A stretch of DNA of 56,273 bases, taken from the NCBI RefSeq assembly GCF_000177335.1, contig NZ_ADFP01000011.1:1-56273 (forward strand), given 5' to 3'. The position numbers and the translations under genes are program-made. Below the pieces are notes generated by a model, which saw nothing but the letters and a program-made list of their open reading frames with translations, ran no database searches and was not told the origin of the DNA. The stretch is from Pyramidobacter piscolens W5455 (GTDB lineage Bacteria; Synergistota; Synergistia; Synergistales; Dethiosulfovibrionaceae). The stretch's first letter is position 1. The number at the start of each line of letters is the position of its first letter. This document shows, one piece after another, positions 20,345-45,645 of this stretch.

Positions 20345-20604
20345 GAACACGAACCTCCTTTGCCGCCGGAGGACTTACGGACGCCTCCGGAAGTTACGCC
20401 CTGATTCTAGCAGACGGGAAATGCCCGCACATGAGAGAAAACAACAATCCTTTGGGCGGACGGGGGCCGCTGCTTCTCGTCTTTTCTTTCGCATTTTCCG
20501 ACAACGCGAAACACAACACTGAAACTTGAACCGTCTTTTTCTCTCTGAACGTTTCTTTTTACTCTTTTGAGGTGGATTCGAGGAAATTTTTATTGTAAAA
20601 TAAG

Positions 20605-20712
20605 AAGTCATGATATGCAGTTTCAGCCCGGGGAATTTGGTGAAAGACCAAAGCGGCCCCGCCACTGTGAGCGTTTTGCGCGCGAGTCAGGATACCGGCC
20701 TGAAACGGGGGA
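20605..20712 (+). ncRNA. Cobalamin riboswitch 1 (upstream of mutA)
   Basis: The core elements are in order: GTTTCA at 20620 pairing with TGAAAC at 20701 (P1), then GGGGAATTTGGTGAAAGACCA, GCGGCCCCGCCACTGTGA, and the 3' GAGTCAGGATACCGGCC. These match the conserved B12-box layout. A GC-rich hairpin (20726-20754) follows, then a T-run at 20772-20778, consistent with transcriptional control. Adenosylcobalamin is the cofactor of the downstream mutase, so binding would normally switch expression down when cobalamin is abundant; the direction is family knowledge, not seen here. Confidence 0.88.
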
Positions 20713-20725
20713 ACAGAGAGCGAAT

Positions 20726-26453: not shown

Positions 26454-26477
26454 CTGTCTCAGAAACCCAATCGAATA

Positions 26478-26650
26478 ATCAGCACGGTTCGAGACGCTGC
26501 GTCTCGATCAAAAAGGAACCGGGTGAGAATCCCGAGCGGTCCCGCCGCTGTAAAAGCCTCAGCTTCTCCACGCGCCACTGTGAGCCTCGCGCTCATGGGA
26601 AGGCGGAGAAGGCTCCATGGGCTTGAGCCAGAAGACTTGCCGCGCTGAGC
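26478..26650 (+). ncRNA. Cobalamin riboswitch 2 (upstream of CoA-transferase)
   Basis: Conserved blocks are in order: GGAACCGGGTGAGAATCCCG, GCGGTCCCGCCGCTGTAA, a peripheral arm, GCCACTGTGAG, GGGAAGGCGGAGAAGG and TGAGCCAGAAGACTTGCC. This is the longer classical cobalamin riboswitch with the extended P6-like arm, unlike the compact riboswitch 1. It is about 150 nt upstream of a gene that does not itself need B12 but acts in the same propionate cycle. Confidence 0.88.
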
Positions 26651-26729
26651 ACGAAAAAGTTCTCGCGAGCGACGGAACGTGTGTGCTGCTTCAGACCTTC
26701 TTTTTTGACCGAGGCCCCGGCGGCGTACG

Positions 26730-33204: not shown

Positions 33205-34154
33205 TCATTTAAAGCACCTAACGACCCATTGTCTTGCGGTAATACTCCTTATGGTCTGAACGGTGAGATTTCCGATCGTGCGGCACAGACGCTCGATGGG
33301 GTTCATCTCGGGGGTATTATGGAACAGGGGATGTTGGCGGGAACCTGAAGCGCTTTGGACTTGTGCCAAGCGGCTCCGTCACAGCAGAGCAGAATATGAT
33401 CTTCCGGAAATCGGCGTGAAAGTTCCCGCAGGATAATGTTCATACAATCGCTGTCGCAGCTGGGCATGATCAAAAAGAGGCTTTCTCCCGTAAGCAGCTC
33501 TATGGCGCCGTAAGCATAGCGGTATTCGCGGATGTGAAGGCAGGGAACGTTCGGGCGGACGCCTTCTGTACCAGCAGTATTTGGGCTTGTCGATCCTGCC
33601 GAAGCCGGCTTCGTCCTGGAACATCGGTCTGACGTTCCCTGATGTGGATAACTCTTTTAATTCCTGAACTTGAGCGTTAATTTTTTTTGAGGCCTCGATG
33701 GCCTCCTCGCGCGCTTTCTTGGGGTAATGGCTGCGCGGCATGACTTTTCTCCAGTCATGACGTTTCAGGACCGCATAAATATGAGTCGGACTGATAGTAT
33801 GTCCCACCGCGGTCTGATGGGCTATTTCCGCCACCGAAACGATTTCTCCTTTCTCGGCTTTCTCCAGATAAGGCGCAAGTACGGCTTCTTCCTGCTCACA
33901 GGTCATGTTCCGATGGTTGCCAAGGTAATGGCATGCAGCATATACGAGAGGCCGCGATCGATAAACTGCGAGATGATCTTGCTGACGTTCGTGAAGTGGT
34001 ATTCCGTGATTTCGCTGATTTCTTTCAAGGTTTTCCCCCCGGCGCGCAAGCTGAGGATTCTCAGTTTGGCTTTGATCTTCTTGTTGCGATTCTTTTTCCG
34101 CGCGGCTTCGATTTCCGCTTGCTGTTCTGATGTGATCTCGTATTTCACGGACAT
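33205..34154 (-). pseudogene. Decayed IS630-family transposase
   Basis: The first part (34154-33903, 83 aa) is an N-terminal helix-turn-helix (LSLRAGGKTLKEISEITEYHFTNVSKII). It runs into a stop and overlaps the next frame by ATGA, as in two-frame IS630 transposases. The second part has the Winged-helix and DDE start (FQDEAGFGRIDKPKYCWY). It then shifts frame near 33560; the correct sequence continues in another frame (RPNVPCLHIREYRYAYGAIE, then HILLCCDGAAWHKSKALQVP), and shifts again near 33335 into LFHNTPEMNPIERL up to a stop at 33205. Two frameshifts beyond the ORFA/ORFB overlap make it non-functional. No clear terminal inverted repeats were found. Confidence 0.8.
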
Positions 34155-34385: not shown

Positions 34386-36107
34386 CTACTGTGTCAGTAG
34401 TTCCGGCATCGGATCGACCCCGGCGGCCAGAAGGAGCCCGACTACCGCCGCGACGACAGCGGCATAGACCAGGCAGGGAAGGATGTTCGTACGGATCAGC
34501 TTGCCTTCGTTGCCGTTGGTGCCGGTGGTGGCGCAGACTGCAACGATATTGTTGACGCAGATCATGTTGCCGATGCCGCCGCCCATGGTCTGGAGCGCCA
34601 CGATGAGGACCTGGGACAGGCCGACGAGGGTCGCGGTCTCGAACTGCAGCGAAGCGAACAGCGTGTTTGACACCGTGCAGGAACCCGACATGAACGCTCC
34701 GAGAACGCCGATGAGCGGAGCGATAATGAAGTAAGTCCCCTGGAAGAGTTTCGCCAGCGCGTCGGCCATGACGTAGAGCATCGAGCTGTTCTTGAACGTG
34801 AACTCCGAGCCCGCCGCGGCGCCGGCGACAGCCGCCCCGATTTGCGCGCTCGACGTGTAGCGGTACAGGTTGACCATGGCGACGCCGAACAGCAAGGCTG
34901 TGGCCGCGCCGGACCAGTTTTTCACGGAATCTACGACGGCGATTTTGGTCTCTTCCCGCGACATGCGGTGCAGCGGAACCGTCAGGATTGCGACGAGGAC
35001 GAAGGGCATGATGCCGGGGTTGTACAGGAATTTGAAGTCCCAGCCGATTCCCTCGAAGCCGAGGATGTTCCCGACGCGCAGGATAAACGGATCGTTGTTA
35101 AAAAGGGTTTTGAGGCCGAAAGCGTTCAGCCTCGTCAGCACCAGGATAACGCCGATGACGATGTAGGGCGTCCAGGCCAGAAGTGGCTTCATGCTCTTGT
35201 CCTTGACGGATGTGACAACTGTGGTGGACTGCCAGGAGGGCTCGCCCCATTCTTTGTAGCCGTCGAAGGTCCAGACCTTTTTGGGGACGCAGACGCCTTT
35301 TTTCGCGCAGAACATCATCACGATCATGCCGCCGAGGAAAGCCGTCATGGAAATCAATTCGGGGGCGGCGAAGAACGACATGACGATGTAGATCGAGCCA
35401 ACGACGACGCCGGTGAGCAGGCAAAACGGAACGGCAGGGACGGCGTCCCTGAACGAACGGTTCTTCCCGAACGCCTTACACATCATGAAGACGACGGCCA
35501 TGATGATAAACAGACCGCCGATCATGTTCGGGATGCAGACCCAGCGTGTCAGCACCGTCGTGAATTTTTCGGGATCGCCGCCGAGATGTTTCACCGCGTC
35601 CGCAACGACTTTGGAAGCCGTGAGCAGCGGCACGCCGACAGGGCCGGGGTTGACAGGCGTCGAGTTGCAGACGAGGCAGATCGCCGCCGCGGCGAGAGGG
35701 GGAAATCCCAGGCTGATCAGAATCGGCGCGCCCAAGGCGGCCGGCGTGCCGAACCCCGCCGCCCCCTCGATAAATCCGGCGAAGCAGTAGCCGACGATGA
35801 TAGCCTGAAGACGCGCGTCTTCGGTGATGCCGGAGAACATTCCGTTGATGGAAGCCATGGCACCCGACTGCTTGAGCACGTTCATCAGCAGGATGGCCCC
35901 GAAAATGATGGCGCTCGTTTCGAAAGAAGCCAGGAAGCCGGCGACCGTTCGGGCGGCGGCTTCTCCGATCCCCATGCCCCAGACGGAGCACGCGACAGCA
36001 AAAGCCGCGAGCCATGAAATGATCAGCGATCGTTTGGCGGACCAGTTCATAAAGACCATGAAGACGATAGTGAGCAAGATCGGTACGGCGGCAATCAATG
36101 CATACAT
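34386..36107 (-). CDS. L-lactate permease family transporter (LctP/LldP)
   Basis: 573 aa with about 13-14 hydrophobic helices. Family motifs: GFIEGAAGFGTPAALGAPIL (about residues 112-131), STPVNPGPVGVPLL, and GGIGNMICVNNIVAVCATTG near the C-terminus. AAGGAGA precedes the ATG. LctP proteins import 2-hydroxy monocarboxylates (lactate, glycolate) with H+. Here the gene is divergent from a TetR regulator and the Grd-like locus, so it may import the substrate or export a carboxylic acid product of that pathway; this is inference. Confidence 0.9.
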   Translation of the reverse strand: MYALIAAVPILLTIVFMVFMNWSAKRSLIISWLAAFAVACSVWGMGIGEAAARTVAGFLASFETSAIIFGAILLMNVLKQSGAMASINGMFSGITEDARLQAIIVGYCFAGFIEGAAGFGTPAALGAPILISLGFPPLAAAAICLVCNSTPVNPGPVGVPLLTASKVVADAVKHLGGDPEKFTTVLTRWVCIPNMIGGLFIIMAVVFMMCKAFGKNRSFRDAVPAVPFCLLTGVVVGSIYIVMSFFAAPELISMTAFLGGMIVMMFCAKKGVCVPKKVWTFDGYKEWGEPSWQSTTVVTSVKDKSMKPLLAWTPYIVIGVILVLTRLNAFGLKTLFNNDPFILRVGNILGFEGIGWDFKFLYNPGIMPFVLVAILTVPLHRMSREETKIAVVDSVKNWSGAATALLFGVAMVNLYRYTSSAQIGAAVAGAAAGSEFTFKNSSMLYVMADALAKLFQGTYFIIAPLIGVLGAFMSGSCTVSNTLFASLQFETATLVGLSQVLIVALQTMGGGIGNMICVNNIVAVCATTGTNGNEGKLIRTNILPCLVYAAVVAAVVGLLLAAGVDPMPELLTQ

Positions 36108-36495: not shown

Positions 36496-37119
36496 ATGTC
36501 TGTAAATCTTATTACGAAGGAAGCGATCGCTTCGACGCTGGAGAGCCTTCTCCTGGAGAGGCAGTTTTCGAAGATCCCCGTAAAGGACGTTACTGAAGCC
36601 TGCGGCATCAGCCGGAATACATTCTATTATCACTTCAAGGACAAGTACGAGCTGATGAACTGGATCCTAGACGACGACATGGCGAAGAACGTGGAAAATT
36701 ATGACGACCCCATGCGCATTCCCGAAACGTTTGTGTCCATGTGCGGTTTTATGTACCGGAGGAAGAAGTTTTACTACCCCTGCATGCAGTACGACGGTCA
36801 GGATTCGTTGTACCAGCATTTGACGGATTTTTTCTTCGAACTGTGGAAGCTCAACATCGACATGGTGTATGCGGCGTCCGGGTTCAAGCTGAGCGAGTAC
36901 GAGATCACCGTTTACGCGAAAATGAACGCTCACGCTCTGGTGGGGCTGATGCGGGACTGGATCCATGCGGGGATGCGCGACAATTACAGGAGTTATTTCG
37001 AGCAAGTCAGCGAGATATTCCGCGTACAGAGCGAGATGTACGCCATCATGTCCGAAAATAAACAGATATCGAAACGCGGCGGTGCGACGAAAAACATTGG
37101 GGGAATACAGGCGTCATGA
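36496..37119 (+). CDS. TetR/AcrR family transcriptional regulator
   Basis: 207 aa. The N-terminal helix-turn-helix reads FSKIPVKDVTEACGISRNTFYYHFKDKYELMNWI (residues about 24-57), the DhaS/TetR_C_8-type signature. The rest is an all-helical ligand domain with several aromatic and Cys residues (FVSMCGFMYRRKKFYYPCMQYDG). AGGAGA lies upstream. The stop codon overlaps the next start (ATGA), so it is co-translated with the half-GrdB gene. It probably senses the pathway's substrate and controls itself and lctP. Confidence 0.85.
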   Translation: MSVNLITKEAIASTLESLLLERQFSKIPVKDVTEACGISRNTFYYHFKDKYELMNWILDDDMAKNVENYDDPMRIPETFVSMCGFMYRRKKFYYPCMQYDGQDSLYQHLTDFFFELWKLNIDMVYAASGFKLSEYEITVYAKMNAHALVGLMRDWIHAGMRDNYRSYFEQVSEIFRVQSEMYAIMSENKQISKRGGATKNIGGIQAS

Positions 37120-37937
37120 ACAAAGCGGAAATCATTTATTCTGTGACGGAGGAATCGGGCGAGGCGCGGGATAACGTCATCCCGTTCATCGCGTACCATA
37201 CGCCGGCGCCCAAACGCTGTCTCGACATGTTGCTCGCCAAGTATTACGGGGAAAAGTTTTGCTCGGAAGTGAAAATGCCCGTACCGGAAGAGCACGTGAC
37301 GCCGGTTCTTTCCGTTCCGCTCGCGGCGGCGCGGATCATGATGGTCACGGACGGGGGGCTGGTGCCGAAAGGGAATCCCGACTGCCTGCCGCCGTCCAAC
37401 GCGCGGGAGTTCCACGCCTATGGTTTCGGTTTTGCAGAGCGATTCAAAGCCGAAGAATACGAAGTGTCTCATCAGGGCTACGATCACGGCGACGTCGACG
37501 AAGACCCGAACCGCCTGCTCCCGCTGGATATCCTGCGGGAGATGACGCGCGCAGGGGAGATCGGCGGCGTTTATCCGCGTTTTCTGTCGACGACGGGCGT
37601 CATGATGCCTTCCGAGACGGCGCGCAGGATAGGGCGCGAGATTGCCGTCCGCGTGTCGGCCTGTTCGATTGACGCCGTGCTTATTGTTTCAACCTGTGGA
37701 ACCAGCACGCGATGCGGCGCCTGCATCGCGCTTGCGCTGGAAGATCGCGGGATTCCCGCAGTGCAGATCACGAACCTCACGGAGATCGCGTGGAGCATGG
37801 GCGTGCGGCACGTCGAAAAGGGCGCCAGCGTGGGGAGTCCGGTTGGTTTTGCGGGGCTTTCGCAGCAGGAGGAACGCCGACGGCGGCGGCGCATCGTCTG
37901 CTCGGCGCTGCGCAGGCTGTGCGCGGACTTTGCCTAG
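37116..37937 (+). CDS. Half-length GrdB homologue with Cys in place of selenocysteine
   Basis: 273 aa versus about 437 for GrdB. It aligns only with the C-terminal two-thirds of the full GrdB-like protein at 39404: LAKYYGEKFCSEVKMP, VTDGGLVPKGNPD, EYEVSHQGYDHGDVDEDPNRLLPLD, and the active-site loop VSTCGTSTRCGA, where C194 sits at the Sec position and C200 is kept. The N-terminal Rossmann-like part of GrdB is missing, and the C-terminus ends in a short Arg-rich tail (RRRRRRIVCSALRRL) instead of the usual one. The start overlaps the tetR stop. It may be a redox or thiol-based partner or a substrate sensor; not a simple pseudogene, because the frame and active-site loop are intact. Confidence 0.8.
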   Translation: MNKAEIIYSVTEESGEARDNVIPFIAYHTPAPKRCLDMLLAKYYGEKFCSEVKMPVPEEHVTPVLSVPLAAARIMMVTDGGLVPKGNPDCLPPSNAREFHAYGFGFAERFKAEEYEVSHQGYDHGDVDEDPNRLLPLDILREMTRAGEIGGVYPRFLSTTGVMMPSETARRIGREIAVRVSACSIDAVLIVSTCGTSTRCGACIALALEDRGIPAVQITNLTEIAWSMGVRHVEKGASVGSPVGFAGLSQQEERRRRRRIVCSALRRLCADFA

Positions 37938-37993
37938 ACGTGCCGGATGACGCTTGAGCGAGGTCTTTTTGAACAGATTAATAATATGTAAAG

Positions 37994-38035
37994 AAAACAG
38001 ACATAGGCGTCCTTTGCCTATTGTCTGTTTTTTTG
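37994..38035 (+). terminator. Intrinsic terminator between half-GrdB and GrdE-like genes
   Basis: AAACAGACATAGGC and GCCTATTGTCTGTTT form a long stem around GTCCTTT, followed by seven T. It separates the tetR-halfGrdB transcript from the reductase genes. Confidence 0.85.
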
Positions 38036-38114
38036 TGCGGATGGAGAATGTGCGTATGAAAGAGTTCCGGCGAAACATTGTGCGACGATGTAAACGGAAA
38101 GGAGAGGAAAATCA

Positions 38115-39383
38115 ATGAGCAAGAGATTGCAGATTGATTACATCCACATTAAAGACGTGAAGTTCGGGGACCGAACGGCGCTCGATCACGGCGTCCTGAC
38201 CATCGACAAACAGGAACTGCTGGATATGGCGGGCAGCGAGCTGTTCGGAAAGCTGGACATCAAACTGGCCCGTCCCGGCGAAAACTGCCGCATCCTCGGC
38301 ATCCACGACATTATGCAGCCCCGGTGCAAAGCGGACGCGCCCGAGACGTCGTATCCCGGCATTTGGGGGAAACTCGCCCCCGTGGGCGAGGGACGCACGG
38401 TGGCGCTCAAGGGCGTGGTCGTTTCCGACATTTACTACGCCAAGTGCAACGTCAAATACTATCTTGACATGGGCGGAGAGTGCGCCAGGTACACGAACTT
38501 TTCGCGCCACTTCCACGTGATCCTGGACGCCGAACCGGCGGAAGGGGTCAGCGACCTGAGCTATGCGGAAGCGCTGAAATACGCGTCCCTGACGATCAAC
38601 GTCCGTCTGGCAAAACTCGGCATCGGCGAAACCCCGGACGAGACGAAAACGTACCAGCTCGGTCCGGTAGGCCCGGGCCCCGACGGCAAGCCGCTTCCCC
38701 GGGTGGCGTATCACGTCGTCCACATGGCCTCGCACGATACCTGGAACTTCCTGATGTACGGGCAGAGCGCGCTGAACTTCCTGCCGATCGTCGTGCAGCC
38801 GACCGAGATATTGGACGGAGCGATGATCTGGCGCTACTGGGAGCCGAACTACTTCCTGCAGGAAGAGATCTACATCAAGGAACTGATGGAACGCCACGGC
38901 AAAGATATTGATTTTGCCGGCGTGGTCTTCTCCAACAACGTCATGAAGATCGACGGCAAGGATACCATGGGCATGATTGCGGCGACGCTCTGCAAGGAAA
39001 CGCTGAAGGCGGACTGCGTCATCGTCAACAAGTCCGGCATGGGGCACTGCCAGCTGGATCAGGCGCTCGCCTTCAACTGGGAAGAGAAGATGGGCATGCG
39101 GTGCGTGATGAATCTGAGCGCCGTTTCCAACGACAGGCCCGGCGACATGCTGGTCATCGCCGACCCGAGGATCGACGCGGTCATCAACAGCGGCCGGAAC
39201 TACGATCTGCACCATCCGCGCGTGGAGCGCCTGATCGGGGAGGGGACGAACGTGCCCTCGCTGCTGGGCGTGGACGCGAAGGGGCCGTTCACGCATACGA
39301 CGAACTTCGCGTATCAAGGGATCTGGTCGCAGCTCGGCGACTGTTACGTGACGACGGACGCGGACCTTCCCTACTCCAAGTGA
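38115..39383 (+). CDS. Glycine/sarcosine/betaine reductase component B, GrdE/GrdG/GrdI-like subunit
   Basis: 422 aa with GGAAAGGAGAGG upstream. Family sequence throughout: HIKDVKFGDRTALDHGVLTIDKQEL at the N-terminus, KLARPGENCRI, VGEGRTVALKGVVV, QPTEILDGAMI, and MERHGKDIDFAGVVFSNN. In glycine-reductase GrdE a GNC segment right after PTEVMDGAIV is autoprocessed to a pyruvoyl cofactor. Here that segment reads WRYWEPNYFLQEE and has no cysteine. So it is probably not cleaved, as reported for the betaine enzyme, and does not use a Schiff base. Twenty bp upstream of the selenoprotein gene, as in known grd pairs. Confidence 0.88.
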   Translation: MSKRLQIDYIHIKDVKFGDRTALDHGVLTIDKQELLDMAGSELFGKLDIKLARPGENCRILGIHDIMQPRCKADAPETSYPGIWGKLAPVGEGRTVALKGVVVSDIYYAKCNVKYYLDMGGECARYTNFSRHFHVILDAEPAEGVSDLSYAEALKYASLTINVRLAKLGIGETPDETKTYQLGPVGPGPDGKPLPRVAYHVVHMASHDTWNFLMYGQSALNFLPIVVQPTEILDGAMIWRYWEPNYFLQEEIYIKELMERHGKDIDFAGVVFSNNVMKIDGKDTMGMIAATLCKETLKADCVIVNKSGMGHCQLDQALAFNWEEKMGMRCVMNLSAVSNDRPGDMLVIADPRIDAVINSGRNYDLHHPRVERLIGEGTNVPSLLGVDAKGPFTHTTNFAYQGIWSQLGDCYVTTDADLPYSK

Positions 39384-39403
39384 CCGGGAAAGGAGGAATC
39401 GAC

Positions 39404-40723
39404 ATGTCTGAACCGATCAGAGTGGTGCACTACATCAATCAGTTCTTCGCCGGCATGGGCGCGGAAGATACCGCGAGCGTCGGCGTTTCCGTCAGAGAGG
39501 AGCCGGTTGGCCCCGGACTCGGGCTGCAGAAGGAACTGGGGGACGACTATAAGATCGTTGCGACGATCATCTGCGGCGACAACACGATCGCCGAAAAAAC
39601 AGACGAGATTCTCGCCGAATTCGACAAGCTGATCCGGAAGTACGACGCCCAGCTGTTCATCGCCGGGCCCGGCTTTAACGCGGGACGTTACGGGATCGGC
39701 TGCGGCGCTTCGACTGCCTACGTAACGGAAAAGATGAAACTTCCCGCGGTGACCGCGCTATACTCCGAAAATCCCGGCACGGATCTTTACAAGGACCGCT
39801 GTTACATCCTGCAGACCGACAACAGCGCGGCGGGCATGCGGCAAACGCTTCCCAAGCTGGCGGCGTTCGCCAAACGGCTTGCGGCGGGAAGCCCAATCGG
39901 CGACGGGAAGAAGGAAGGCTACCATGGCTCCGGTCCCGCCGTGGAGATCGATTATTCCGTTCCCGCCAGCCGCCGGGGAGTGAATATGCTGCTTGCCAAA
40001 TATCATAACAAGCCCTTCGCGACGGAAGTCCGCATGCCGAATCACGAGGAGATCCCGCTTCCGGTGCTGCATAAACCGCTGAAAGAGATCAAACTCGCTC
40101 TGGTCACGGACGGGGGGCTTGTACCCAAGGGCAATCCGGACAGCATGGTGCCGACCAATTCCAAGACCTTCAACAAATACAGAATCGGCAACGTGGCGCG
40201 CCTTGACGCAAAAGATTACGAAGTCAGCCACCAAGGCTACAACAACGCTTTCGTGTTGGACGACCCGAACCGCCTCGTTCCCGTGGACGCAGCGCTTGAT
40301 CTCAAGAAGAAGGGCGTGATCGGCGAATTGCTGGATTCGTACTACACGACGGCCGGCGTGATGACGCCGATGGAAATGGGCAAAAAATTCGGCAGCGAGA
40401 TCGCCGCGGACTTGCGCAAGCAGGATGTCGACGCGGTCATCCTGACCAGCACGTGAGGCACGTCTTCACGCTGCGGTGCAGTGATGACGAAAGAGATCGA
40501 ACGTGCCGGCATCCCGGTCATCCACGTGACGAACCTGACGGAAATCTCCAAGGGGATCGGCAGTCACAGGATCCTCAGGGGCAACAGCGTCCTGCACGTC
40601 TTTGGGAACCCGAAACTGCCGAAGGAGCAGGAATTCAAATACCGCGAGGAACGCTTGGAAAAGGCTCTCGACATGCTGGAAGAAAAACCGGAAGCTGGAC
40701 AGCACACGCTTATCGAGGAGTAA
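39404..40723 (+). CDS. Selenoprotein: glycine/sarcosine/betaine reductase component B, GrdB/GrdF/GrdH-like (Sec351)
   Basis: 439 aa when the in-frame TGA at 40454-40456 is read as selenocysteine. The codons before and after stay in one frame and give LTST-U-GTSSRCGAVMTKEIERAG, matching the family active site STUGTCTRCGA; the middle Cys of that motif is Ser354 here and Cys357 is kept. Without readthrough the protein would end at 350 residues, exactly at the catalytic residue. AAAGGAGGAATC precedes the ATG. In the known enzymes, with the GrdE-type subunit it activates the substrate and transfers a carboxymethyl group to selenoprotein GrdA. GrdA and GrdCD are not in this window. Confidence 0.9.
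40458..40479 (+). promoter_or_regulatory. Candidate SECIS stem-loop for Sec351
   Basis: Directly after the UGA, GCAC (40458-40461) pairs with GTGC (40476-40479) with two further pairs inside and a loop of about nine bases (CTTCACGCT). Bacterial SECIS elements sit just 3' of the UGA, within the coding region, so location fits. The stem is short and the assignment needs folding and comparison. Confidence 0.45.
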
Positions 40724-40813
40724 ATGGCCAAAGATGAGCATTTTTCACAACTGCGCAAAATGGAGACAATTTCGTTATGTGAAGAATGCGGACGGAAAGC
40801 GCGCATAGTATGA
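40724..40813 (+). CDS. Possible 29-residue peptide with CxxC
   Basis: The ATG directly follows the selenoprotein stop (GAGGAGTAAATG), with the GAGGAG in ribosome-site position. The peptide is MAKDEHFSQLRKMETISLCE and then ECGRKARIV; LCEECGRK is a zinc-ribbon- or thiol-like CxxC. It ends at a TGA followed by TGT, TTT, TAA. Coding status is uncertain; it could be a chance frame. Confidence 0.3.
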   Translation: MAKDEHFSQLRKMETISLCEECGRKARIV

Positions 40814-40877
40814 TGTTTTTAACGAGAGAGCGCCGGGAATCCAGCGTTCATCGAAAGACCTGAAAGGAGACGGTTTT

Positions 40878-41759
40878 ATGAAGTACAATTGCGAAGTGAT
40901 CGATCTGGCAAGGAAAGACAATGGCAAGAAACTGTACTTTACGAAATTTGACTGTCCCGCCAGCTGGGGCGACAAGAATGTACTGCTCGTACACGGTTTG
41001 ACCTACACCCAGCACGTTTTTGACATCAAGTACAAGGATTACAGCGTCTGCGAATATTTTGCGAAAAACGGCTACACGGTGTGGCGCGTCGATCTCGGCG
41101 GATACGGACGTTCGGAAGAATACGAAAACGGTTTCGACGTCACGACCGAGAACGCTGCGAAAGATATCCTCTGCGCTGTGGAGAAAATCTGCGAACTCCA
41201 GAAGGTCGAGAAGGTCCCCGTCGTCGGCTGGTCCTGGGGAACCATGACGACGGCGAAGGCCGCCGAACTCGACAAGAGTACCCATATCAGCAAGATCGTC
41301 TGGATGGGACCGTTCCTGGGCGGCGCTTTCCCTCCCGCCGAGTGCAAGGATCCGTTTACTTTCCTGCAGTATCCGTACGTCGTTCGGGTATTCCAGCATC
41401 TTCCCGGCAGCGATGAAGACGTCGACATGGACACTGTCGAGCCCGAAATCGTAGGACTTTGGTGCGACCATGTCTACAAGATCGACGGCAAGCACGGCCG
41501 CCCGAACGGCGGAAACAGGGAAATTCTTGGCTGCGGCGACAAATGGTCGGTCGAGACCAAGAAAGTCCCGTGTCCCGTTCTGATCGTTACCGGAGACTGC
41601 GATTTCTATGTGAATATCGACCGCGTCTACCAAGCGGCCAAGGAACTGCCGGAAGGTTCTCAGCTTCTTCACCTGCACGGCGCCGGCCACTGCATGTACC
41701 TCGAGAAGGATTACTACAAGAAGACCAGGGAGACGATCCTCGACTTCCTGAACAAGTAG
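40878..41759 (+). CDS. Alpha/beta hydrolase 1 of the Grd-like locus
   Basis: 293 aa. Start ATG has GAAAGGAGACG upstream. Oxyanion region VLLVHGLTYTQHVF (HG at 39-40), nucleophile elbow GWSWG with Ser119, catalytic Asp at 240 or 242 in VTGDCDFY, and catalytic His271 in HGAGH. No signal peptide; cytoplasmic. The family covers esterases, lipases, dehalogenases and thioesterases and the substrate cannot be read. It lies 154 bp behind the selenoprotein and is closely related to the hydrolase at 43999 (same length, same catalytic pattern). A role in freeing or finishing the reductase substrate is inference. Confidence 0.85.
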   Translation: MKYNCEVIDLARKDNGKKLYFTKFDCPASWGDKNVLLVHGLTYTQHVFDIKYKDYSVCEYFAKNGYTVWRVDLGGYGRSEEYENGFDVTTENAAKDILCAVEKICELQKVEKVPVVGWSWGTMTTAKAAELDKSTHISKIVWMGPFLGGAFPPAECKDPFTFLQYPYVVRVFQHLPGSDEDVDMDTVEPEIVGLWCDHVYKIDGKHGRPNGGNREILGCGDKWSVETKKVPCPVLIVTGDCDFYVNIDRVYQAAKELPEGSQLLHLHGAGHCMYLEKDYYKKTRETILDFLNK

Positions 41760-41773
41760 CCGCAATCTATGGG

Positions 41774-41807
41774 GCCGCACGCGCGTTGACCGGCGTGCGG
41801 CTTTTTT
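41774..41807 (+). terminator. Intrinsic terminator after hydrolase 1
   Basis: GCCGCACGC and GCGTGCGGC enclose a ten-base loop, followed by six T. It closes the grdE/grdB/hydrolase transcript. Confidence 0.85.
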
Positions 41808-41845
41808 GCGCGCCGCGCCGGAAGAGGCGGAAAGGAGGACGGGAC

Positions 41846-42586
41846 ATGAAGATACGGACGGCGGCCGAGATGAAAAGAAACGTTCCAGAGCGCTTTGCGT
41901 GGATCCTGGATCACGTTTTCGAGCAAGTGCGCGCCGGGCGGATAAAGGTCGGAGAGGAACTTCCGTCCGCCGGCGAGCTCGCCGCGGCGCTCGGCGTTTC
42001 CGAAAGCGAGTCCGCCGCGGCCCTTCGCGAGATGGAGACTCTCTGCCTCGTCGAAAAACGTTCCGGGTCGGGACCCTATATATTCGGAAGTGTATCGAAC
42101 GGCTTCACCCACACGTTCGACGTCATGCGGATGCTGGGGATCGTCGGGCCGCGCGACGTCGGCGCTTTTCGAAAGAGCATGGAGCTGGCGGTTTACGACC
42201 TCGCGTTCCGCAATCGGAACAAAAGGCTCGAGCTGGCGGAGATGAAAGAAGTCCTCGGCGCTTTCCCGCAAGAGAATATCGAGACGCAGATCAGGCTGGA
42301 TCAGCGGTTCCATTATCTGCTGACCGAAATGACGGACAACGGAGTTATGACGATGCTGATGTCCGCGATCTTCGAAATCTACGGACGCTGGGTGACGCGG
42401 GGGCTCGGCGCGATGCCAGAGCGGGGCATGCGCCGCCTGCACAACGCCCATACGAAAATATACGAAAGCCTTCTCCACAACGACAAGGCGGCGGGGCTTG
42501 AAGCGATCGACGAACATTATTACCTCATAGAATTGGCGGGAGAAGAAATGCTGAACGTCCGCAGTCCGCGGCAGCCGTTGGTCTGA
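41846..42586 (+). CDS. FadR/FCD-type GntR-family regulator 1 (divergent recognition helix)
   Basis: 246 aa with AAAGGAGGAC upstream. N-terminal winged helix VFEQVRAGRIKVGEELPSAGELAAALGVSESESAAALREME. The recognition helix SESESAAALREM lacks the Arg-rich pattern of regulator 2 (SRNSVREGVRALE). The C-terminal FCD domain (about residues 90-235) keeps metal-ligand positions: Asp and His in LDQRFHYLL, and His in AHTKIYESLLHNDKAAGLEAIDEHYY. It may bind a different operator, act with regulator 2, or have lost DNA binding. Confidence 0.82.
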   Translation: MKIRTAAEMKRNVPERFAWILDHVFEQVRAGRIKVGEELPSAGELAAALGVSESESAAALREMETLCLVEKRSGSGPYIFGSVSNGFTHTFDVMRMLGIVGPRDVGAFRKSMELAVYDLAFRNRNKRLELAEMKEVLGAFPQENIETQIRLDQRFHYLLTEMTDNGVMTMLMSAIFEIYGRWVTRGLGAMPERGMRRLHNAHTKIYESLLHNDKAAGLEAIDEHYYLIELAGEEMLNVRSPRQPLV

Positions 42587-42622
42587 CGGGAGCGCGCCGC
42601 CGTTTTTAACGTGATGTGATGG

Positions 42623-42660
42623 AAATGACCGGCCCCTGGAGCGCGCGGGCGGTCATTTTT
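42623..42660 (+). terminator. Intrinsic terminator after GntR 1
   Basis: AATGACCGGCCC pairs with GGGCGGTCATT (one bulge), followed by five T. Confidence 0.7.
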
Positions 42661-42703
42661 GCGCTTTAACGCCGGAAAAATTTTGCCGCGTCTTATAGCC
42701 GTC

Positions 42704-42732
42704 TTGACAGTGATGTATTTTAGGAGTATTGT
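42704..42732 (+). promoter_or_regulatory. Promoter of GntR 2
   Basis: TTGACA (42704-42709), 17-bp spacer, TATTGT (42727-42732). Predicted start near 42739. The operator-like TGGTAGGACCA lies at +7 to +17. Confidence 0.7.
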
Positions 42733-42744
42733 GCGGGTGAAAAG

Positions 42745-42755
42745 TGGTAGGACCA
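42745..42755. promoter_or_regulatory. FadR/GntR-type operator TGGTAGGACCA, site 1
   Basis: TGGT-NNN-ACCA is the established operator form for FCD-type GntR proteins such as LldR and PdhR. The site sits just downstream of the -10 of the regulator's own promoter, which indicates autorepression. Confidence 0.7.
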
Positions 42756-42777
42756 AAATTAGTCAGGGGAGGAACAG

Positions 42778-43482
42778 ATGGCCTGTCTGCGAGAGTTCGA
42801 AAAAGTCATAGACTACATCATCGGCGAGATCCGCGAAGGCAGGGCAGTCGTCGGGAGCGAGATCCCCTCGGAGCGGCAGATCTCGGCGGAGCTCTGCATC
42901 AGTCGGAACTCCGTGCGCGAAGGCGTACGCGCTCTCGAGAACATGGGCGTCGTCGAAAGCCGCCATGGTTCGGGAAATTACATTTCTGGCAGCATTTCCG
43001 GCAGCGTCAAGCGTGCTCTCGACGTGATGCTCCTGCTGCGGAAGATCGACATGAAAGAGATTTCGGACTACCGCAAGAGCACGGAATTGGCCGTTTTCGA
43101 TCTGGCTTTCGGCAACCCCGACAAAAACAACCAGCTGCGCAAGATCTCCGAAATACTGGACGACTTTATGAAACAGCCGCTGGAAGAGCGGATCCGGAGG
43201 GACAACGAGTTCCATTACGCTCTGGTAAAAATGGCGGATAACCAGATCCTTTCGATCGTCATGAGCAGCATTTCCGAGGTGTACTCGCGGTGGGTGCGGC
43301 AGGTGCTGGAGTCGATGCCCGAAAAGGGCATGCGGCAGCTGCACGAAGCTCATACGAAACTCTTCGAAAGCTTCATCCATAACGACAAAGCGGCAGGCAT
43401 CGCAGCGATCGACGAGCATTATTTTACGATCAGCCTGATGGCCGGCCGGATCGGCAAAAAAGACGCAGGAAACGGCGTGTGA
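42778..43482 (+). CDS. FadR/FCD-type GntR-family regulator 2
   Basis: 234 aa with GGGGAGG upstream. Winged helix VIDYIIGEIREGRAVVGSEIPSERQISAELCISRNSVREGVRALENMGVVESRHGSGNYI with an intact recognition helix. The FCD ligand domain has the expected His/Asp residues (DNEFHYALVKMADNQ, AHTKLFESFIHNDKAAGIAAIDEHYF). FCD regulators usually sense small carboxylates or amino/hydroxy acids. The operator TGGTNNNACCA occurs in its own promoter and again before the next gene (43500), so it probably controls itself and the small protein/hydrolase 2 unit. Confidence 0.88.
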   Translation: MACLREFEKVIDYIIGEIREGRAVVGSEIPSERQISAELCISRNSVREGVRALENMGVVESRHGSGNYISGSISGSVKRALDVMLLLRKIDMKEISDYRKSTELAVFDLAFGNPDKNNQLRKISEILDDFMKQPLEERIRRDNEFHYALVKMADNQILSIVMSSISEVYSRWVRQVLESMPEKGMRQLHEAHTKLFESFIHNDKAAGIAAIDEHYFTISLMAGRIGKKDAGNGV

Positions 43483-43499
43483 TTATTTCTCAAATAAAG

Positions 43500-43510
43500 T
43501 GGTAGAACCA
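43500..43510. promoter_or_regulatory. FadR/GntR-type operator TGGTAGAACCA, site 2
   Basis: Same TGGT-NNN-ACCA form as site 1, with the longer match AGTGGTAGRACCAA shared between both. It lies 18 bp after the GntR 2 stop and 34 bp before the small membrane protein start. Confidence 0.65.
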
Positions 43511-43543
43511 ATTAAGCCGGCACAAACGGGGGAGGAATCTGTT

Positions 43544-43858
43544 ATGACAGCGCTGAACTGCATCGTTTTCATCGTCGCCGTCGTTGCGCTGATGTTGGGC
43601 GGCGCGCGCGTCAAACTGCGAGCGCCCTCGTTGGCCGCGAGGACCGTGCGGAAAAACGACAGCGGCCTGGTTCTTGAATTCGACGATTTTGGCCGTTTGC
43701 CGCCGCCGGTGGTCGACGTTTTCCGCGCGGTCTATTCCGTGGGGAAAGAGTACGTCTACGAAGGCGCAACGTACCGCCTCGCAGAAATGAGGACCGTCGC
43801 GCAGGCGGGCGAAAAGGGCGCGAAAATGGTCTGTACGTTTGTGGAACGCGGTGGCTAA
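43544..43858 (+). CDS. Small single-TM protein of unknown function
   Basis: 104 aa from MTALNCIVFIVAVVALMLGG, with GGGGGAGGAATC upstream. One N-terminal TM helix (residues 4-22) with a soluble C-terminal domain of about 80 residues (GLVLEFDDFGRLPPPVVDVFRAVYSVGKEYVYEGATYRLAEM-like) facing one side of the membrane. Family not recognised. It is downstream of operator site 2 and upstream of hydrolase 2. Confidence 0.65.
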   Translation: MTALNCIVFIVAVVALMLGGARVKLRAPSLAARTVRKNDSGLVLEFDDFGRLPPPVVDVFRAVYSVGKEYVYEGATYRLAEMRTVAQAGEKGAKMVCTFVERGG

Positions 43859-43998
43859 GATTCTATGGGAAAAAGCGGATGTCCGCACAGATTGCCGGAG
43901 GGGCCGCGCAGACATCGGATACGGCGCGCGGCTCACGATGCGCGGGCACTTCGGGGAGTCGCGGCGAACGAATTCGGATTGTGAAAAAGGAGGCATTC

Positions 43999-44880
43999 AT
44001 GGAGTTCTCGTTTGAAAGCGTTTTTGTACGGAGAAAAGACAACGGCAAGAAGATCTTCGTAAACAGGTGCTTCTGTCCGGCCAGCTACGACGCGAAGAAC
44101 CTGCTTTGCGTACATGGTCTGACGTCGTCGAACCACGTATTTGACCTCGATTACAAGGATTACAGCGTGGCGCGCTATTTCGCGCGAAACGGTTATAACG
44201 TCTGGTGCATGGATTACGGCGGCTATGGGCTGTCGGACAAATACGAGAACGGTTTCGATGTGGACACGGAGAACGCGGCGAAGGACGTTGTCGCCGTCGC
44301 CGGGGAAATCTGCGCGCGCCAGCATGCCGACAAGCTGAACGTCCTTGGCTGGTCTTGGGGAAGCATGACCTCCGCCCGGGCTTCCGCGATGCGTCCCGAA
44401 CTGTTCCGAAGAATGGCGTGGGTCGGCCCCTGTTTTGGCGGCACGCTTCCGACGACCGTGGTCAAAGAACCTTTTACCACGCTTTCCTATCCGTATTGCG
44501 TGCGCGTGTTTCAAAGGGTGAACGGCTCGGATACGGAAGTCGACTATGCGACGGTGGAGCACGGTTTGGTGAGTCTGTGGGTCGAACAGGTGTTCAAAAA
44601 CGACGCGGGGCACGGACGTCCCAACGGAGGCAACCGCGACATCTCGGCTGCAGGGGACAAATGGCTGATCGAACCGGAGACGGCCACGTGCCCCGTCCTT
44701 CTTCATTTCGGGGACAAAGACGTGTACGTCGACAAAGGACGGGTCAAAATAGCCCTTGACAAGCTACCGAACGGTTCCGCCTGCAATTTCATGAAAGGCG
44801 CGGGGCACGCGCTCTGGGTGGAAAGGGATTATTACAGACCCTTCCGCGAGCGGACTCTGGCGTTCTTTGAAGAGGAGTGA
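43999..44880 (+). CDS. Alpha/beta hydrolase 2 of the Grd-like locus
   Basis: 293 aa from MEFSFESVFVRRKDNGK, with AAAAAGGAGG upstream. A full-length paralogue of hydrolase 1: shared KDNGKK start, NLLCVHGLTSSNHVFDLDYKDYSV, DYGGYGLSDKYENGFDV, nucleophile elbow GWSWGS (Ser about 119), HGRPNGGNRDI, GDKDVYVD (Asp) and KGAGHALW (His). The two probably arose by duplication and act on related substrates. A terminator follows. Confidence 0.85.
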   Translation: MEFSFESVFVRRKDNGKKIFVNRCFCPASYDAKNLLCVHGLTSSNHVFDLDYKDYSVARYFARNGYNVWCMDYGGYGLSDKYENGFDVDTENAAKDVVAVAGEICARQHADKLNVLGWSWGSMTSARASAMRPELFRRMAWVGPCFGGTLPTTVVKEPFTTLSYPYCVRVFQRVNGSDTEVDYATVEHGLVSLWVEQVFKNDAGHGRPNGGNRDISAAGDKWLIEPETATCPVLLHFGDKDVYVDKGRVKIALDKLPNGSACNFMKGAGHALWVERDYYRPFRERTLAFFEEE

Positions 44881-44916
44881 CGCAGGGGCAGGGGATACGG
44901 AGGACGGAAGGAACAA

Positions 44917-44956
44917 GGGCGCCGGTCGGCATTTGCCGCGCGGCGCCCATATTTTT
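44917..44956 (+). terminator. Intrinsic terminator after hydrolase 2
   Basis: GGGCGCCG and CGGCGCCC enclose a 16-nt loop with inner pairing, followed by ATATTTTT. Confidence 0.75.
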
Positions 44957-45024
44957 ACAGTTTCGGCCCGACAAAGGCAAATCCTTTCCTGCACATCGAA
45001 AACCCCGACAACGAGGAGGAAAAG

Positions 45025-45645
45025 ATGGACGAAAGCGGAAAAAAGCACCGTGTCACGATGTTCCTTGACGTTATTTGCGAATGGTGTTACCTGGCCAAAG
45101 GGATTTTGGACAGTCTGCGCGGCCGTTACGATCTTGACGTGACCCTGCTCTTTATGGAAATACATCCCGACGCGCCGGAAGGCGGGATGCCCATGAGCTG
45201 GCACATCCCCGAACCGAAAAAGTTCTTCGCCATGCTGAACGCGATGGGAGCACCTTACGGCGTCCGTTTCCGCGATAGGGACGTTTTCTCCAACACGCGC
45301 AAGGCCCTGCTCGCCGCCGAGTACGCGAAATCCATCGGCAAGGGAGAAAATTTTCTGCGCGCGATCTGGAGAGCCTATATGGAAGAGGGAAAAAACATTT
45401 CCGAAGAGGCCGTGATCGAAGAAGCGGCTATGACGGCGGGGCTCGGCCCCCGGGCGCTCGAGGTCGCGTGGGGAGCTCCGGAGTGGGGCGAGCGCCTTCG
45501 GGAAAATGCCGTGCTGAACGATCGCTGCGGAATGGACGGCAACGTGCCCGGATTTGTCATCGACGGAAAATACACGCTCTCAGGCGCTCAGTCCGCAAAG
45601 ACATGGGAAGAGATCCTGCAGAGGATCGAACGGACGGGAGATTGA
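45025..45645 (+). CDS. DsbA/FrnE-family thiol oxidoreductase
   Basis: 206 aa with GAGGAGGAAAAG upstream. Thioredoxin-fold CxxC is in VICEWCYLAK (residues about 17-26), and the cis-Pro loop is GNVPGFVIDGKYTLSGAQ. The helical insertion fits the FrnE/2-hydroxychromene isomerase-like branch of the DsbA family. No signal peptide, so it is cytoplasmic and is more likely a reductase or isomerase than a periplasmic disulfide donor. Last gene of the Grd-like region; a link to the selenol/thiol chemistry of GrdB is possible but unproven. Confidence 0.85.
   Translation: MDESGKKHRVTMFLDVICEWCYLAKGILDSLRGRYDLDVTLLFMEIHPDAPEGGMPMSWHIPEPKKFFAMLNAMGAPYGVRFRDRDVFSNTRKALLAAEYAKSIGKGENFLRAIWRAYMEEGKNISEEAVIEEAAMTAGLGPRALEVAWGAPEWGERLRENAVLNDRCGMDGNVPGFVIDGKYTLSGAQSAKTWEEILQRIERTGD

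What the first reader, a model, noticed from the sequence alone, without database searches (positions are those of the whole stretch)
36496..45645. Candidate undescribed selenium-dependent reductase pathway
A GrdE/GrdI-like subunit and a selenocysteine GrdB/GrdH-like subunit are grouped with a half-GrdB, a TetR, two alpha/beta hydrolases, two FCD-type GntR regulators, a one-TM protein, a cytoplasmic DsbA-family protein and a divergent lactate-permease-family transporter. Seen: gene order and motifs. Established: Grd component B gives substrate specificity, while GrdA, GrdC and GrdD are shared. Inference: this is a substrate-specific module for a compound that is neither glycine nor sarcosine, possibly released by the hydrolases.
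Basis: partly seen in the sequence, partly recalled or inferred. Interest (0 to 1): 0.85.

Follow-up and report, generated by a model that had tools for sequence, protein, structure and literature searches.

The report
Fluoroacetate reductase with a sensor-like gene
This anaerobic bacterium carries the recently described genes for breaking down the poison fluoroacetate, and beside them an altered half-copy of the enzyme that looks as if it has become part of the switch that detects the poison.

Summary
The listed genes are real, but the pathway is not undescribed. The 38115 protein is FarE, fluoroacetate reductase (NCBIfam NF053623, 938 bits, cut-off 675), known from farACEB of Cloacibacillus porcorum MFA1 (PMC10838667). 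Pyramidobacter sp. C12-8, isolated on fluoroacetate, has the same gene order and a 99% identical FarE. The genome has GrdA, GrdC, GrdD, SelA, SelB and tRNA-Sec.

The accessory anatomy looks new. (1) The half-GrdB is a Cys-for-Sec paralogue of FarB's C-terminal half. It occurs at 21 of 30 far loci, always with a TetR in the locus; 13 pairs overlap and one is fused into a 525-aa frame. Among 149 Synergistota genomes I found it in 6 of 8 with FarE and 0 of 141 without. I read it as an enzyme-derived ligand sensor. (2) An LctP permease is at 14 of 30 loci, an oxalate/formate-type MFS carrier at 6, never both. (3) The module is common in gut Bacillota. Hydrolase, GntR and DsbA genes recur only sporadically. 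Sensor role, carrier role and natural substrate are inferred.

The parts
34386..36107 (-). LctP-family (lactate/glycolate permease) transporter; probable uptake carrier of the substrate anion
   Evidence: TIGR00795 315 bits, cut-off 341; homologues at 14 of 30 far loci, never together with the MFS carrier; divergent next to tetR in 12 of the 14, not in L057 and L063
36496..37119 (+). TetR-family regulator, DhaS-like
   Evidence: PF00440/PF14278; best NCBIfam DhaS TIGR02366 107 bits, below its cut-off of 129; best PDB hits 4mk6 and 2iu5 DhaS
37116..37937 (+). Half-GrdB: Cys-for-Sec paralogue of the FarB C-terminal half; proposed ligand sensor for the TetR
   Evidence: PF07355 positions 181-347; TGT at 37695 where FarB has TGA; start overlaps the TetR stop by 4 bp; tree
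38003..38021 (+). Terminator-like hairpin with T-rich tail between half-GrdB and farE
   Evidence: the scan found 16 such sites against 11.7, sd 3.2, in shuffles, so weak by itself
38115..39383 (+). FarE, fluoroacetate reductase, GrdE-type subunit of component B, without the GNC site of GrdE
   Evidence: NF053623 938 bits; alignment with own GrdE proteins
39404..40723 (+). FarB, selenocysteine subunit of component B
   Evidence: PF07355 430 bits; single UGA read as Sec; FarB clade 100/98
40454..40456 (+). In-frame UGA, Sec351 of FarB
40461..40489 (+). SECIS-like hairpin after the UGA
   Evidence: CGCTGC...GCAGTG recurs in the nine FarB sites folded (one base differs in L043). Energy does not discriminate: z -1.1 here, -1.6 at the Cys site of the half-GrdB (100 mononucleotide shuffles)
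40878..41759 (+). Alpha/beta hydrolase 1 (Ser nucleophile motif GWSWG)
   Evidence: PF00561 76 bits; 52-68% identical copies in L042, L048, L052, L061
41846..42586 (+). FCD-type GntR regulator 1
   Evidence: 49% homologue in L043
42778..43482 (+). FCD-type GntR regulator 2
   Evidence: 56% homologue in L063
43499..43858 (+). 119-aa protein, no Pfam family; among the loci scanned found only in the same genus
43999..44880 (+). Alpha/beta hydrolase 2 (Ser nucleophile motif), about 51% identical to hydrolase 1
   Evidence: the 51% is between hydrolase 1 of the window and the hydrolase 2 orthologue in L033
45025..45645 (+). DsbA-fold oxidoreductase
   Evidence: PF01323 93 bits; homologues also in L035, L042, L043, L053, L063

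Best explanation
The locus is a fluoroacetate (haloacetate-type) reductase module of the known far kind. FarE-FarB binds the halo-acid; Sec351 of FarB attacks the alpha carbon and expels fluoride. The carboxymethyl-selenoether passes to the shared GrdA and GrdC/D, giving acetyl phosphate and ATP; this route is inferred from glycine reductase and the 2023 paper. A pyruvoyl/Schiff base is unlikely, because FarE lacks the GrdE GNC site (absence shown; meaning from the paper). LctP imports the anion in place of the MFS carrier (inferred from the swap pattern). The TetR and the Cys half-GrdB form a regulatory pair: the half-GrdB keeps the conserved residues of FarB's C-half but has Cys for Sec, so it would bind, perhaps be alkylated by, the halo-acid without turnover, and switch the TetR that controls lctP and farEB. 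The genetic linkage is shown; the sensing and the targets are inferred. The direction is open: a broken tetR in the fluoroacetate isolate C12-8 fits a repressor, DhaS kinship fits an activator.
For: FarE model 938 bits. C12-8, isolated on fluoroacetate (PMC12366334 passages), has this locus as its only close FarE. FarB has UGA in 28 of 28 distinct rows with the site in view; the half-GrdB has a Cys codon in 21 of 21. The half-GrdB is at 21 of 30 far loci; among 149 Synergistota genomes in 6 of 8 with FarE and 0 of 141 without, within the limits of the list. A homologous TetR is in all 21 half-GrdB loci; 13 of 18 same-strand unfused pairs overlap by 4 or 7 bp; one is a 525-aa fusion. The pair lies upstream, downstream or on the other strand of farEB in different loci, yet is adjacent in 20 of 21. 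LctP 14, MFS 6, both 0 of 30 (tally 96). A 17-mer upstream of farE recurs upstream of lctP in five related loci. Sec machinery, GrdA, GrdC, GrdD present.
Against: No far enzyme has been purified in anything I read; the published evidence is transcript induction and fluoride release by cultures. LctP transport and half-GrdB ligand binding are untested. 9 of 30 far loci show no half-GrdB (L058 is cut by its contig end, L057 close behind farB), and 10 of 30 show neither carrier family (L044 and L058 cut). Three loci have the TetR homologue without a half-GrdB (L043, L056, and L063 where it is about 7 kb beyond farB). L049 has the pair divergent, L054 apart. The 30 loci are not independent: window, L041 and L034 are near-identical, and so are L045-L047. 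C12-8 is a reported degrader although its tetR has a frame-breaking 4-bp insertion near the start, so the TetR is hardly an obligate activator there. The 17-mer was derived from closely related loci, has other 3-mismatch hits (L044, L055, L059, L062), and has no match in the window. FarE-bearing gut Lachnospiraceae are not obvious fluoroacetate habitats.
Confidence: 0.7

Rival explanations
1. FarEB's natural substrate is another alpha-substituted acetate anion, released by the neighbouring esterases or amidohydrolases and imported by lactate-type carriers; fluoroacetate is a fortuitous substrate and inducer.
For: Many FarE loci are in gut Bacillota. Hydrolases recur: hydrolase-1 type, Abhydrolase_3 and M20. 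Carriers of lactate-like families recur: LctP; the MFS of L049, best NCBIfam SfMCT L-lactate carrier at 238 bits, below its cut-off of 320; LrgA/LrgB in L048. L038 has a LarA-type protein before farE. The 2023 authors also suspected another preferred substrate.
Against: The operon is induced about 5000-fold by fluoroacetate and not highly by glycine in C. porcorum. Two rumen isolates came from enrichment on fluoroacetate. The hydrolases are not universal.
Confidence: 0.35
2. The half-GrdB is a working enzyme subunit: a PrdB-like Cys variant that pairs with FarE as a second, slower reductase.
For: It matches the PrdB model weakly (74 bits, cut-off 300) and keeps the invariant residues around the active site.
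Against: It stays with the TetR, not with FarE, when gene order changes. It is fused to the TetR in L035. All 21 have Cys while FarB keeps Sec. Terminator-like hairpins separate it from farE in several loci (window by scan; others by eye).
Confidence: 0.12
3. It is an ordinary sarcosine, betaine or glycine reductase component B.
For: FarB's best NCBIfam hit is the sarcosine GrdF model (449 bits).
Against: 449 is far below that model's cut-off of 800; the 38115 protein scores 938 to FarE and 175 to GrdG. The genome has three other GrdE/GrdB pairs, GrdE at 26-30% identity to FarE, one beside a betaine BCCT-type carrier.
Confidence: 0.02
4. The two alpha/beta hydrolases are hydrolytic fluoroacetate dehalogenases acting beside the reductase.
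For: The fold class is that of known fluoroacetate dehalogenases (recalled).
Against: The nucleophile motif is GWSWG (Ser), read directly in both sequences, not Asp. Hydrolase 1 has no solved relative by phmmer at E 1e-5.
Confidence: 0.03

Closest known systems
farACEB fluoroacetate reductase of Cloacibacillus porcorum MFA1 (PMC10838667)
   Same: FarE by its curated model and FarB beside it; Sec in FarB; first Cys of CxxC lost in FarB; FarE without the GrdE GNC site. The paper counts Pyramidobacter piscolens among the carriers and degraders.
   Different: No MFS farA and no radical-SAM farC beside farEB here; instead a divergent LctP, two Ser hydrolases, two GntR and a DsbA-like gene. The paper's text says no transporter was evident in P. 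piscolens and does not discuss a half-GrdB; its Figure 3 was not seen and may draw it.
Glycine/sarcosine/betaine reductase component B (GrdE/B, GrdG/F, GrdI/H)
   Same: Same two-subunit architecture and Sec motif position
   Different: 26-30% FarE identity to own GrdE-type proteins; FarB and half-GrdB together split from the three own GrdBs with 100/100 support
DhaS-DhaQ of Lactococcus lactis (TetR activator plus coactivator; the paralogy of DhaQ to the enzyme subunit DhaK and covalent ligand binding are recalled)
   Same: The window's TetR is DhaS-like and is paired with a paralogue of the enzyme it would control
   Different: Unrelated enzyme family; TetR score below the DhaS cut-off; activator or repressor role here unknown
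D-proline reductase PrdB
   Same: A stand-alone protein matching the GrdB C-terminal half
   Different: Half-GrdB scores 74 against a PrdB cut-off of 300, but 184 to the GrdB-type model TIGR01918 (cut-off 65); it has Cys, not Sec

Membership tests
Fluoroacetate reductase (far) | FarE above the curated NF053623 cut-off | tested here: met
   938 against 675 bits
Fluoroacetate reductase (far) | FarB selenoprotein directly downstream with Sec and without an intact CxxC | tested here: met
   STUGTSSRCGA in FarB; own GrdBs read STUGSCTRCGA, STUGTCTRCGA and ATUGTCTRCGS
Fluoroacetate reductase (far) | FarE lacks the GrdE autoprocessing cysteines | tested here: met
   SGNCVSACDK of two own GrdEs aligns with WRYW and a gap in FarE; that this is the processing place is my inference from the paper's statement and recall. 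The third own GrdE, beside a BCCT carrier, lacks it too
Fluoroacetate reductase (far) | farA MFS antiporter and farC radical SAM in the operon | tested here: not met
   Neither is among the genes between 34386 and 45645; the paper says P. piscolens lacks both yet degrades fluoroacetate, so they are not obligatory
Fluoroacetate reductase (far) | Releases fluoride and acetate from fluoroacetate | not testable with these tools
   Indirect only: C12-8, with a 99% identical FarE and the same gene order, is a published degrader
Grd component B fed by shared GrdA, GrdC, GrdD and Sec machinery | These genes exist in the genome | tested here: met
   GrdA 246 bits with UGA; component C beta 710 and alpha 557 bits; tRNA-Sec 66 bits, cut-off 47; SelA, SelB. 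SelD, trxAB, grdX not searched
DhaS-DhaQ type regulation | TetR in the DhaS equivalog | tested here: not met
   107 against 129 bits, though the nearest solved proteins are DhaS types
DhaS-DhaQ type regulation | Physical complex with an enzyme paralogue that binds the inducer | not testable with these tools
   One gene fusion and overlapping genes are indirect support
PrdB | Score above TIGR04483 and Sec at the active site | tested here: not met
   74 against 300 bits; Cys codon TGT
Sarcosine, betaine or glycine reductase B | FarB score above the NF040794, NF040795 or TIGR01917 cut-off | tested here: not met
   449/800, 385/775, 392/602 bits
Fluoroacetate dehalogenase (alpha/beta hydrolase) | Asp nucleophile | tested here: not met
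   GWSWG in both hydrolases, by reading; the Asp rule is recalled

The most novel reading that the evidence does not exclude
A retired copy of half of a selenoenzyme has become a small-molecule sensor. The Cys half-GrdB captures fluoroacetate (or a related halo-acid) in a FarB-like active site without turning it over, and through a stable or fused complex switches a DhaS-like TetR. This would be a natural, genetically portable fluoroacetate sensor, and a second independent case (after DhaS-DhaQ, recalled) of a TetR that reads its ligand through an enzyme paralogue.
Probability: 0.5. Interest if true: 0.72.

Novelty: new variant of a known kind. Interest (0 to 1): 0.55.

Why it matters
Anaerobic C-F bond cleavage is rare (general knowledge), and far is one of its few described systems. 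Its distribution is widened here from a few Synergistota to named Bacillota (Faecalimonas umbilicata, Hespellia stercorisuis, Catonella morbi), an uncultured Olsenella and a MAG labelled Deltaproteobacteria, some with cultured strains that can be tested. The paper's remark that P. piscolens has no evident transporter gets a candidate answer (LctP). The half-GrdB/TetR pair offers a testable explanation for the strong induction by fluoroacetate and a possible biosensor.

Tried and rejected
Betaine, sarcosine or glycine reductase: rejected on scores and tree. Hydrolases as dehalogenases: rejected on the Ser motif. Half-GrdB as PrdB: rejected on score and the missing Sec. Structure route: the AlphaFold2 model of the half-GrdB is confident (mean pLDDT 86.1, pTM 0.81) but has no PDB fold match at E 0.001 or better (best 0.022). 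By sequence no solved GrdB or GrdE relative was found (the one hit, E 0.99, is a ribosomal protein). So the structure gave no ligand information. SECIS by folding energy: not informative, the Cys site of the half-GrdB folds at least as well. The 17-mer search did not carry over to the window, nor to loci outside that Bacillota group near farE, apart from one 3-mismatch hit in L062; it is a clade-limited lead only. Papers on DhaQ/DhaS: searches listed no primary paper; only a gene table and a legend were seen, so the mechanism of that pair is recalled. Literature searches on far and its neighbours; a half-GrdB/TetR pair, or LctP with fluoroacetate, did not appear in what they listed or in what I read. 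Term search in PMC12184663 (gut C-F cleavage) found no 'reductase', 'Cloacibacillus' or 'Faecalimonas'. Papers seen: PMC10838667, parts 1-2 of 4 (all text before the references) plus its figure legends and passages; PMC12366334, PMC12184663, PMC8952416 and PMC7911632, passages only; all others as search listings with the start of their abstracts. Supplements and figures were not seen, so Figure 3 of PMC10838667 was judged by its legend.


Full report
OBSERVATION. FarB is read through a single UGA at 40454. The half-GrdB at 37116 matches only the second half of the GrdB profile and has TGT (Cys) at the position of the Sec codon. The host assembly has 2.56 Mb in 140 contigs. It contains three further GrdE/GrdB pairs, GrdE at 26-30% identity to FarE, GrdA with its own UGA, the two component C subunits (GrdC, GrdD) beside a YedE-type selenium transporter, SelA-SelB and tRNA-Sec. 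SelD, trxAB and grdX were not searched.

IDENTITY. NCBIfam names the 38115 protein FarE, fluoroacetate reductase, at 938 bits over the whole model (cut-off 675). The 2023 paper PMC10838667 (text before the references; legends) describes farACEB in Cloacibacillus porcorum MFA1, induced about 5000-fold by fluoroacetate, with orthologues in C. evryensis and Pyramidobacter piscolens that also release fluoride. Its Fig. 3d legend names an alpha/beta hydrolase, fadR and acrR in such clusters. So the core and much of this neighbourhood are in print. The closest named genome is Pyramidobacter sp. C12-8 (contig NZ_MUHX01000005.1, L041; same 135,496-base contig length as G004), reported as isolated by enrichment on fluoroacetate (PMC12366334 passages). 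Its FarE is 99% identical with the same gene order from LctP to the DsbA-like gene. G004 has four GrdE-type matches; the other two listed have E 5e-43 and 1e-42 and the fourth is weaker still. This is the best available evidence for the substrate of the window's locus. Two features that the paper gives for far hold here: CxxC in FarB is not intact and FarE lacks the GrdE GNC site.

DISTRIBUTION. The single genome-contig scan gave 23 FarE loci: besides two Pyramidobacter loci, mostly Lachnospiraceae and other Bacillota at 72-86% identity, with an uncultured Olsenella (71%), a MAG labelled Deltaproteobacteria (76%) and Synergistales PG1894 (62%). I scored five FarE proteins against the curated model: the window, L042, L044 and L059 pass, and L060 falls just short (669 against 675); the rest were not scored. 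With the G genomes I count 30 distinct loci. They are not independent: window, L041 and L034 are near-identical, L045-L047 too, and L044, L045, L057 and L058 are cut. Twelve Bacillota FarEs (L042-L052, L061; 81-86%) are closer to the window than the G112, G080 and second G005 copies (76-77%), which suggests transfer between phyla; no FarE tree was built.

TRANSPORTER. LctP is at 14 of 30 loci and an oxalate/formate-type MFS carrier at 6, with no locus having both; 10 show neither (tally). LctP is divergent next to tetR in 12 of the 14; in L057 it is about 7 kb away and in L063 it follows a DsbA-like gene. The swap makes LctP the likely carrier. Other lactate-type genes recur: LrgA/LrgB beside far in L048, and by eye in L052 and L063; a LarA-type protein in L038 behind genes that look like a TRAP carrier (by eye).

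HALF-GrdB AND TetR. The half-GrdB occurs at 21 of 30 far loci, each time with a Cys codon; FarB has UGA in all 28 distinct rows where the site is in view. In the C-half tree the 28 FarBs are one clade (100/98) and the 21 half-GrdBs lie beside it in more than one branch, all split from the three own GrdBs (100/100); a single origin of the half-GrdB is neither shown nor excluded, and the tree warns of long branches. In 149 Synergistota genomes hits without an in-frame UGA, all above 390 bits, occur only in G000, G004, G005 (two), G080, G101 and G112: 6 of 8 genomes with FarE, 0 of 141 without (Fisher p 2e-9, not corrected for descent). The window's own row shows a TAG because the match runs past its natural stop. 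The two FarE genomes without it are G074 and G002, whose contig ends inside farB. The list was cut at about 247 bits, so a very divergent half-GrdB could be hidden; every other row shown carries UGA. A TetR homologous to the window's is at 24 of 30 loci, including all 21 with the half-GrdB (in L044 only a 102-aa piece was seen). The DhaS resemblance itself was tested on the window's TetR only. Of 18 same-strand unfused pairs, 13 have a half-GrdB start overlapping the TetR stop by 4 or 7 bp, L042 has only a start 67 bp inside, and 4 are 85-108 bp apart. In G005's second far locus the two form one open frame of 525 aa (550 open codons). L049 has the pair divergent; L054 has it on either side of farEB. 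The pair lies upstream, downstream or on the other strand relative to farEB in different loci. These facts tie the half-GrdB to the regulator rather than to the enzyme. Because its active-site surroundings are conserved but Sec is replaced, I propose a non-turnover ligand sensor, by analogy with DhaS-DhaQ (mechanism recalled).

DIRECTION OF CONTROL. C12-8's tetR has a 4-bp insertion after about the sixth codon that breaks its reading frame, while the window and G005 are intact there. If it is not a sequencing error, a strain enriched on fluoroacetate that lost its TetR fits a repressor; DhaS kinship would fit an activator. This is a single case and stays open. In nine related Bacillota loci a 17-mer lies 117-270 bp before farE (0-2 mismatches). 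Copies with two or three mismatches lie before lctP in five of them, and with two mismatches before a hydrolase cluster in three (simulated expectation 0.05 per 21 kb at two mismatches and 0.1 at three, 20 runs). Other 3-mismatch hits without such a position occur in L044, L055, L059 and L062. The pattern came from these loci, which are closely related, and the window has no match, so this is only a lead that lctP and farE share a regulator.

HYDROLASES AND OTHERS. Hydrolase-1-like genes (52-68%) are at 4 loci outside the genus, DsbA-like genes at 5 further loci (L035, in the same genus, and L042, L043, L053, L063), FCD-GntR of 49-56% identity at 2 outside the genus; weaker GntR hits of 22-31% in L037, L049 and L051 were not counted. 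Other hydrolases (M20, Abhydrolase_3) stand in several Bacillota loci. They fit a feeder role for a conjugated substrate, and are the main reason to keep a natural substrate other than fluoroacetate open. Both window hydrolases have a Ser nucleophile motif.

VERDICT. The core is known; the finding's headline of an undescribed pathway does not hold. The enzyme-paralogue sensor, the LctP replacement and the spread in gut Bacillota are the parts that I did not find in the papers searched, with the limit that supplements and figures were not seen and that Figure 3 of PMC10838667 may draw the half-GrdB.

Noticed in passing
L041 8388-9011 (Pyramidobacter sp. C12-8): tetR of the strain isolated on fluoroacetate carries a 4-bp insertion near its start that breaks the frame; the window and G005 are intact there. 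Possible derepressed isolate.
   Followed up: partly
L035 5412-6986: TetR and half-GrdB fused in one 525-aa open frame in G005, which also has a second, window-type far locus.
   Followed up: yes
L045, L046, L047, L050, L051 lctP-tetR gaps; L046 14089, L047 9854, L050 13880: Copies like the 17-mer TGTAAYAGAWTTAAACA found before farE also lie before lctP and before a hydrolase cluster.
   Followed up: partly
L046, L047, L048, L050, L051, L061 downstream of farB: An M20 amidohydrolase follows farB in six Bacillota loci (family search on the L048 copy only). L035 also has a member of this cluster somewhere in its stretch.
   Followed up: partly
L043, L044, L046, L047, L050, L057: Pairs of an Abhydrolase_3-type protein and a 138-aa protein near far loci (family search on the L043 pair only, the small one has no Pfam match).
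   Followed up: no
L048, L052, L063: LrgA/LrgB-like gene pairs next to far (by eye; family search on L048 only).
   Followed up: no
L039 12580-14019; L060 12648-14041: A DUF5058 protein (L060 tested; L039 alike by eye) plus a second small protein after farB where LctP and the MFS carrier are absent; possibly another carrier.
   Followed up: no
L038 7215-9245: An alpha/beta hydrolase and a LarA-type (lactate racemase) protein directly before farE in G074.
   Followed up: no
window 20557-20717 and 26468-26658: Two cobalamin riboswitches on the + strand.
   Followed up: no
window 33379-33906: Looks by eye like a transposase fragment not far from the LctP gene; not searched.
   Followed up: no
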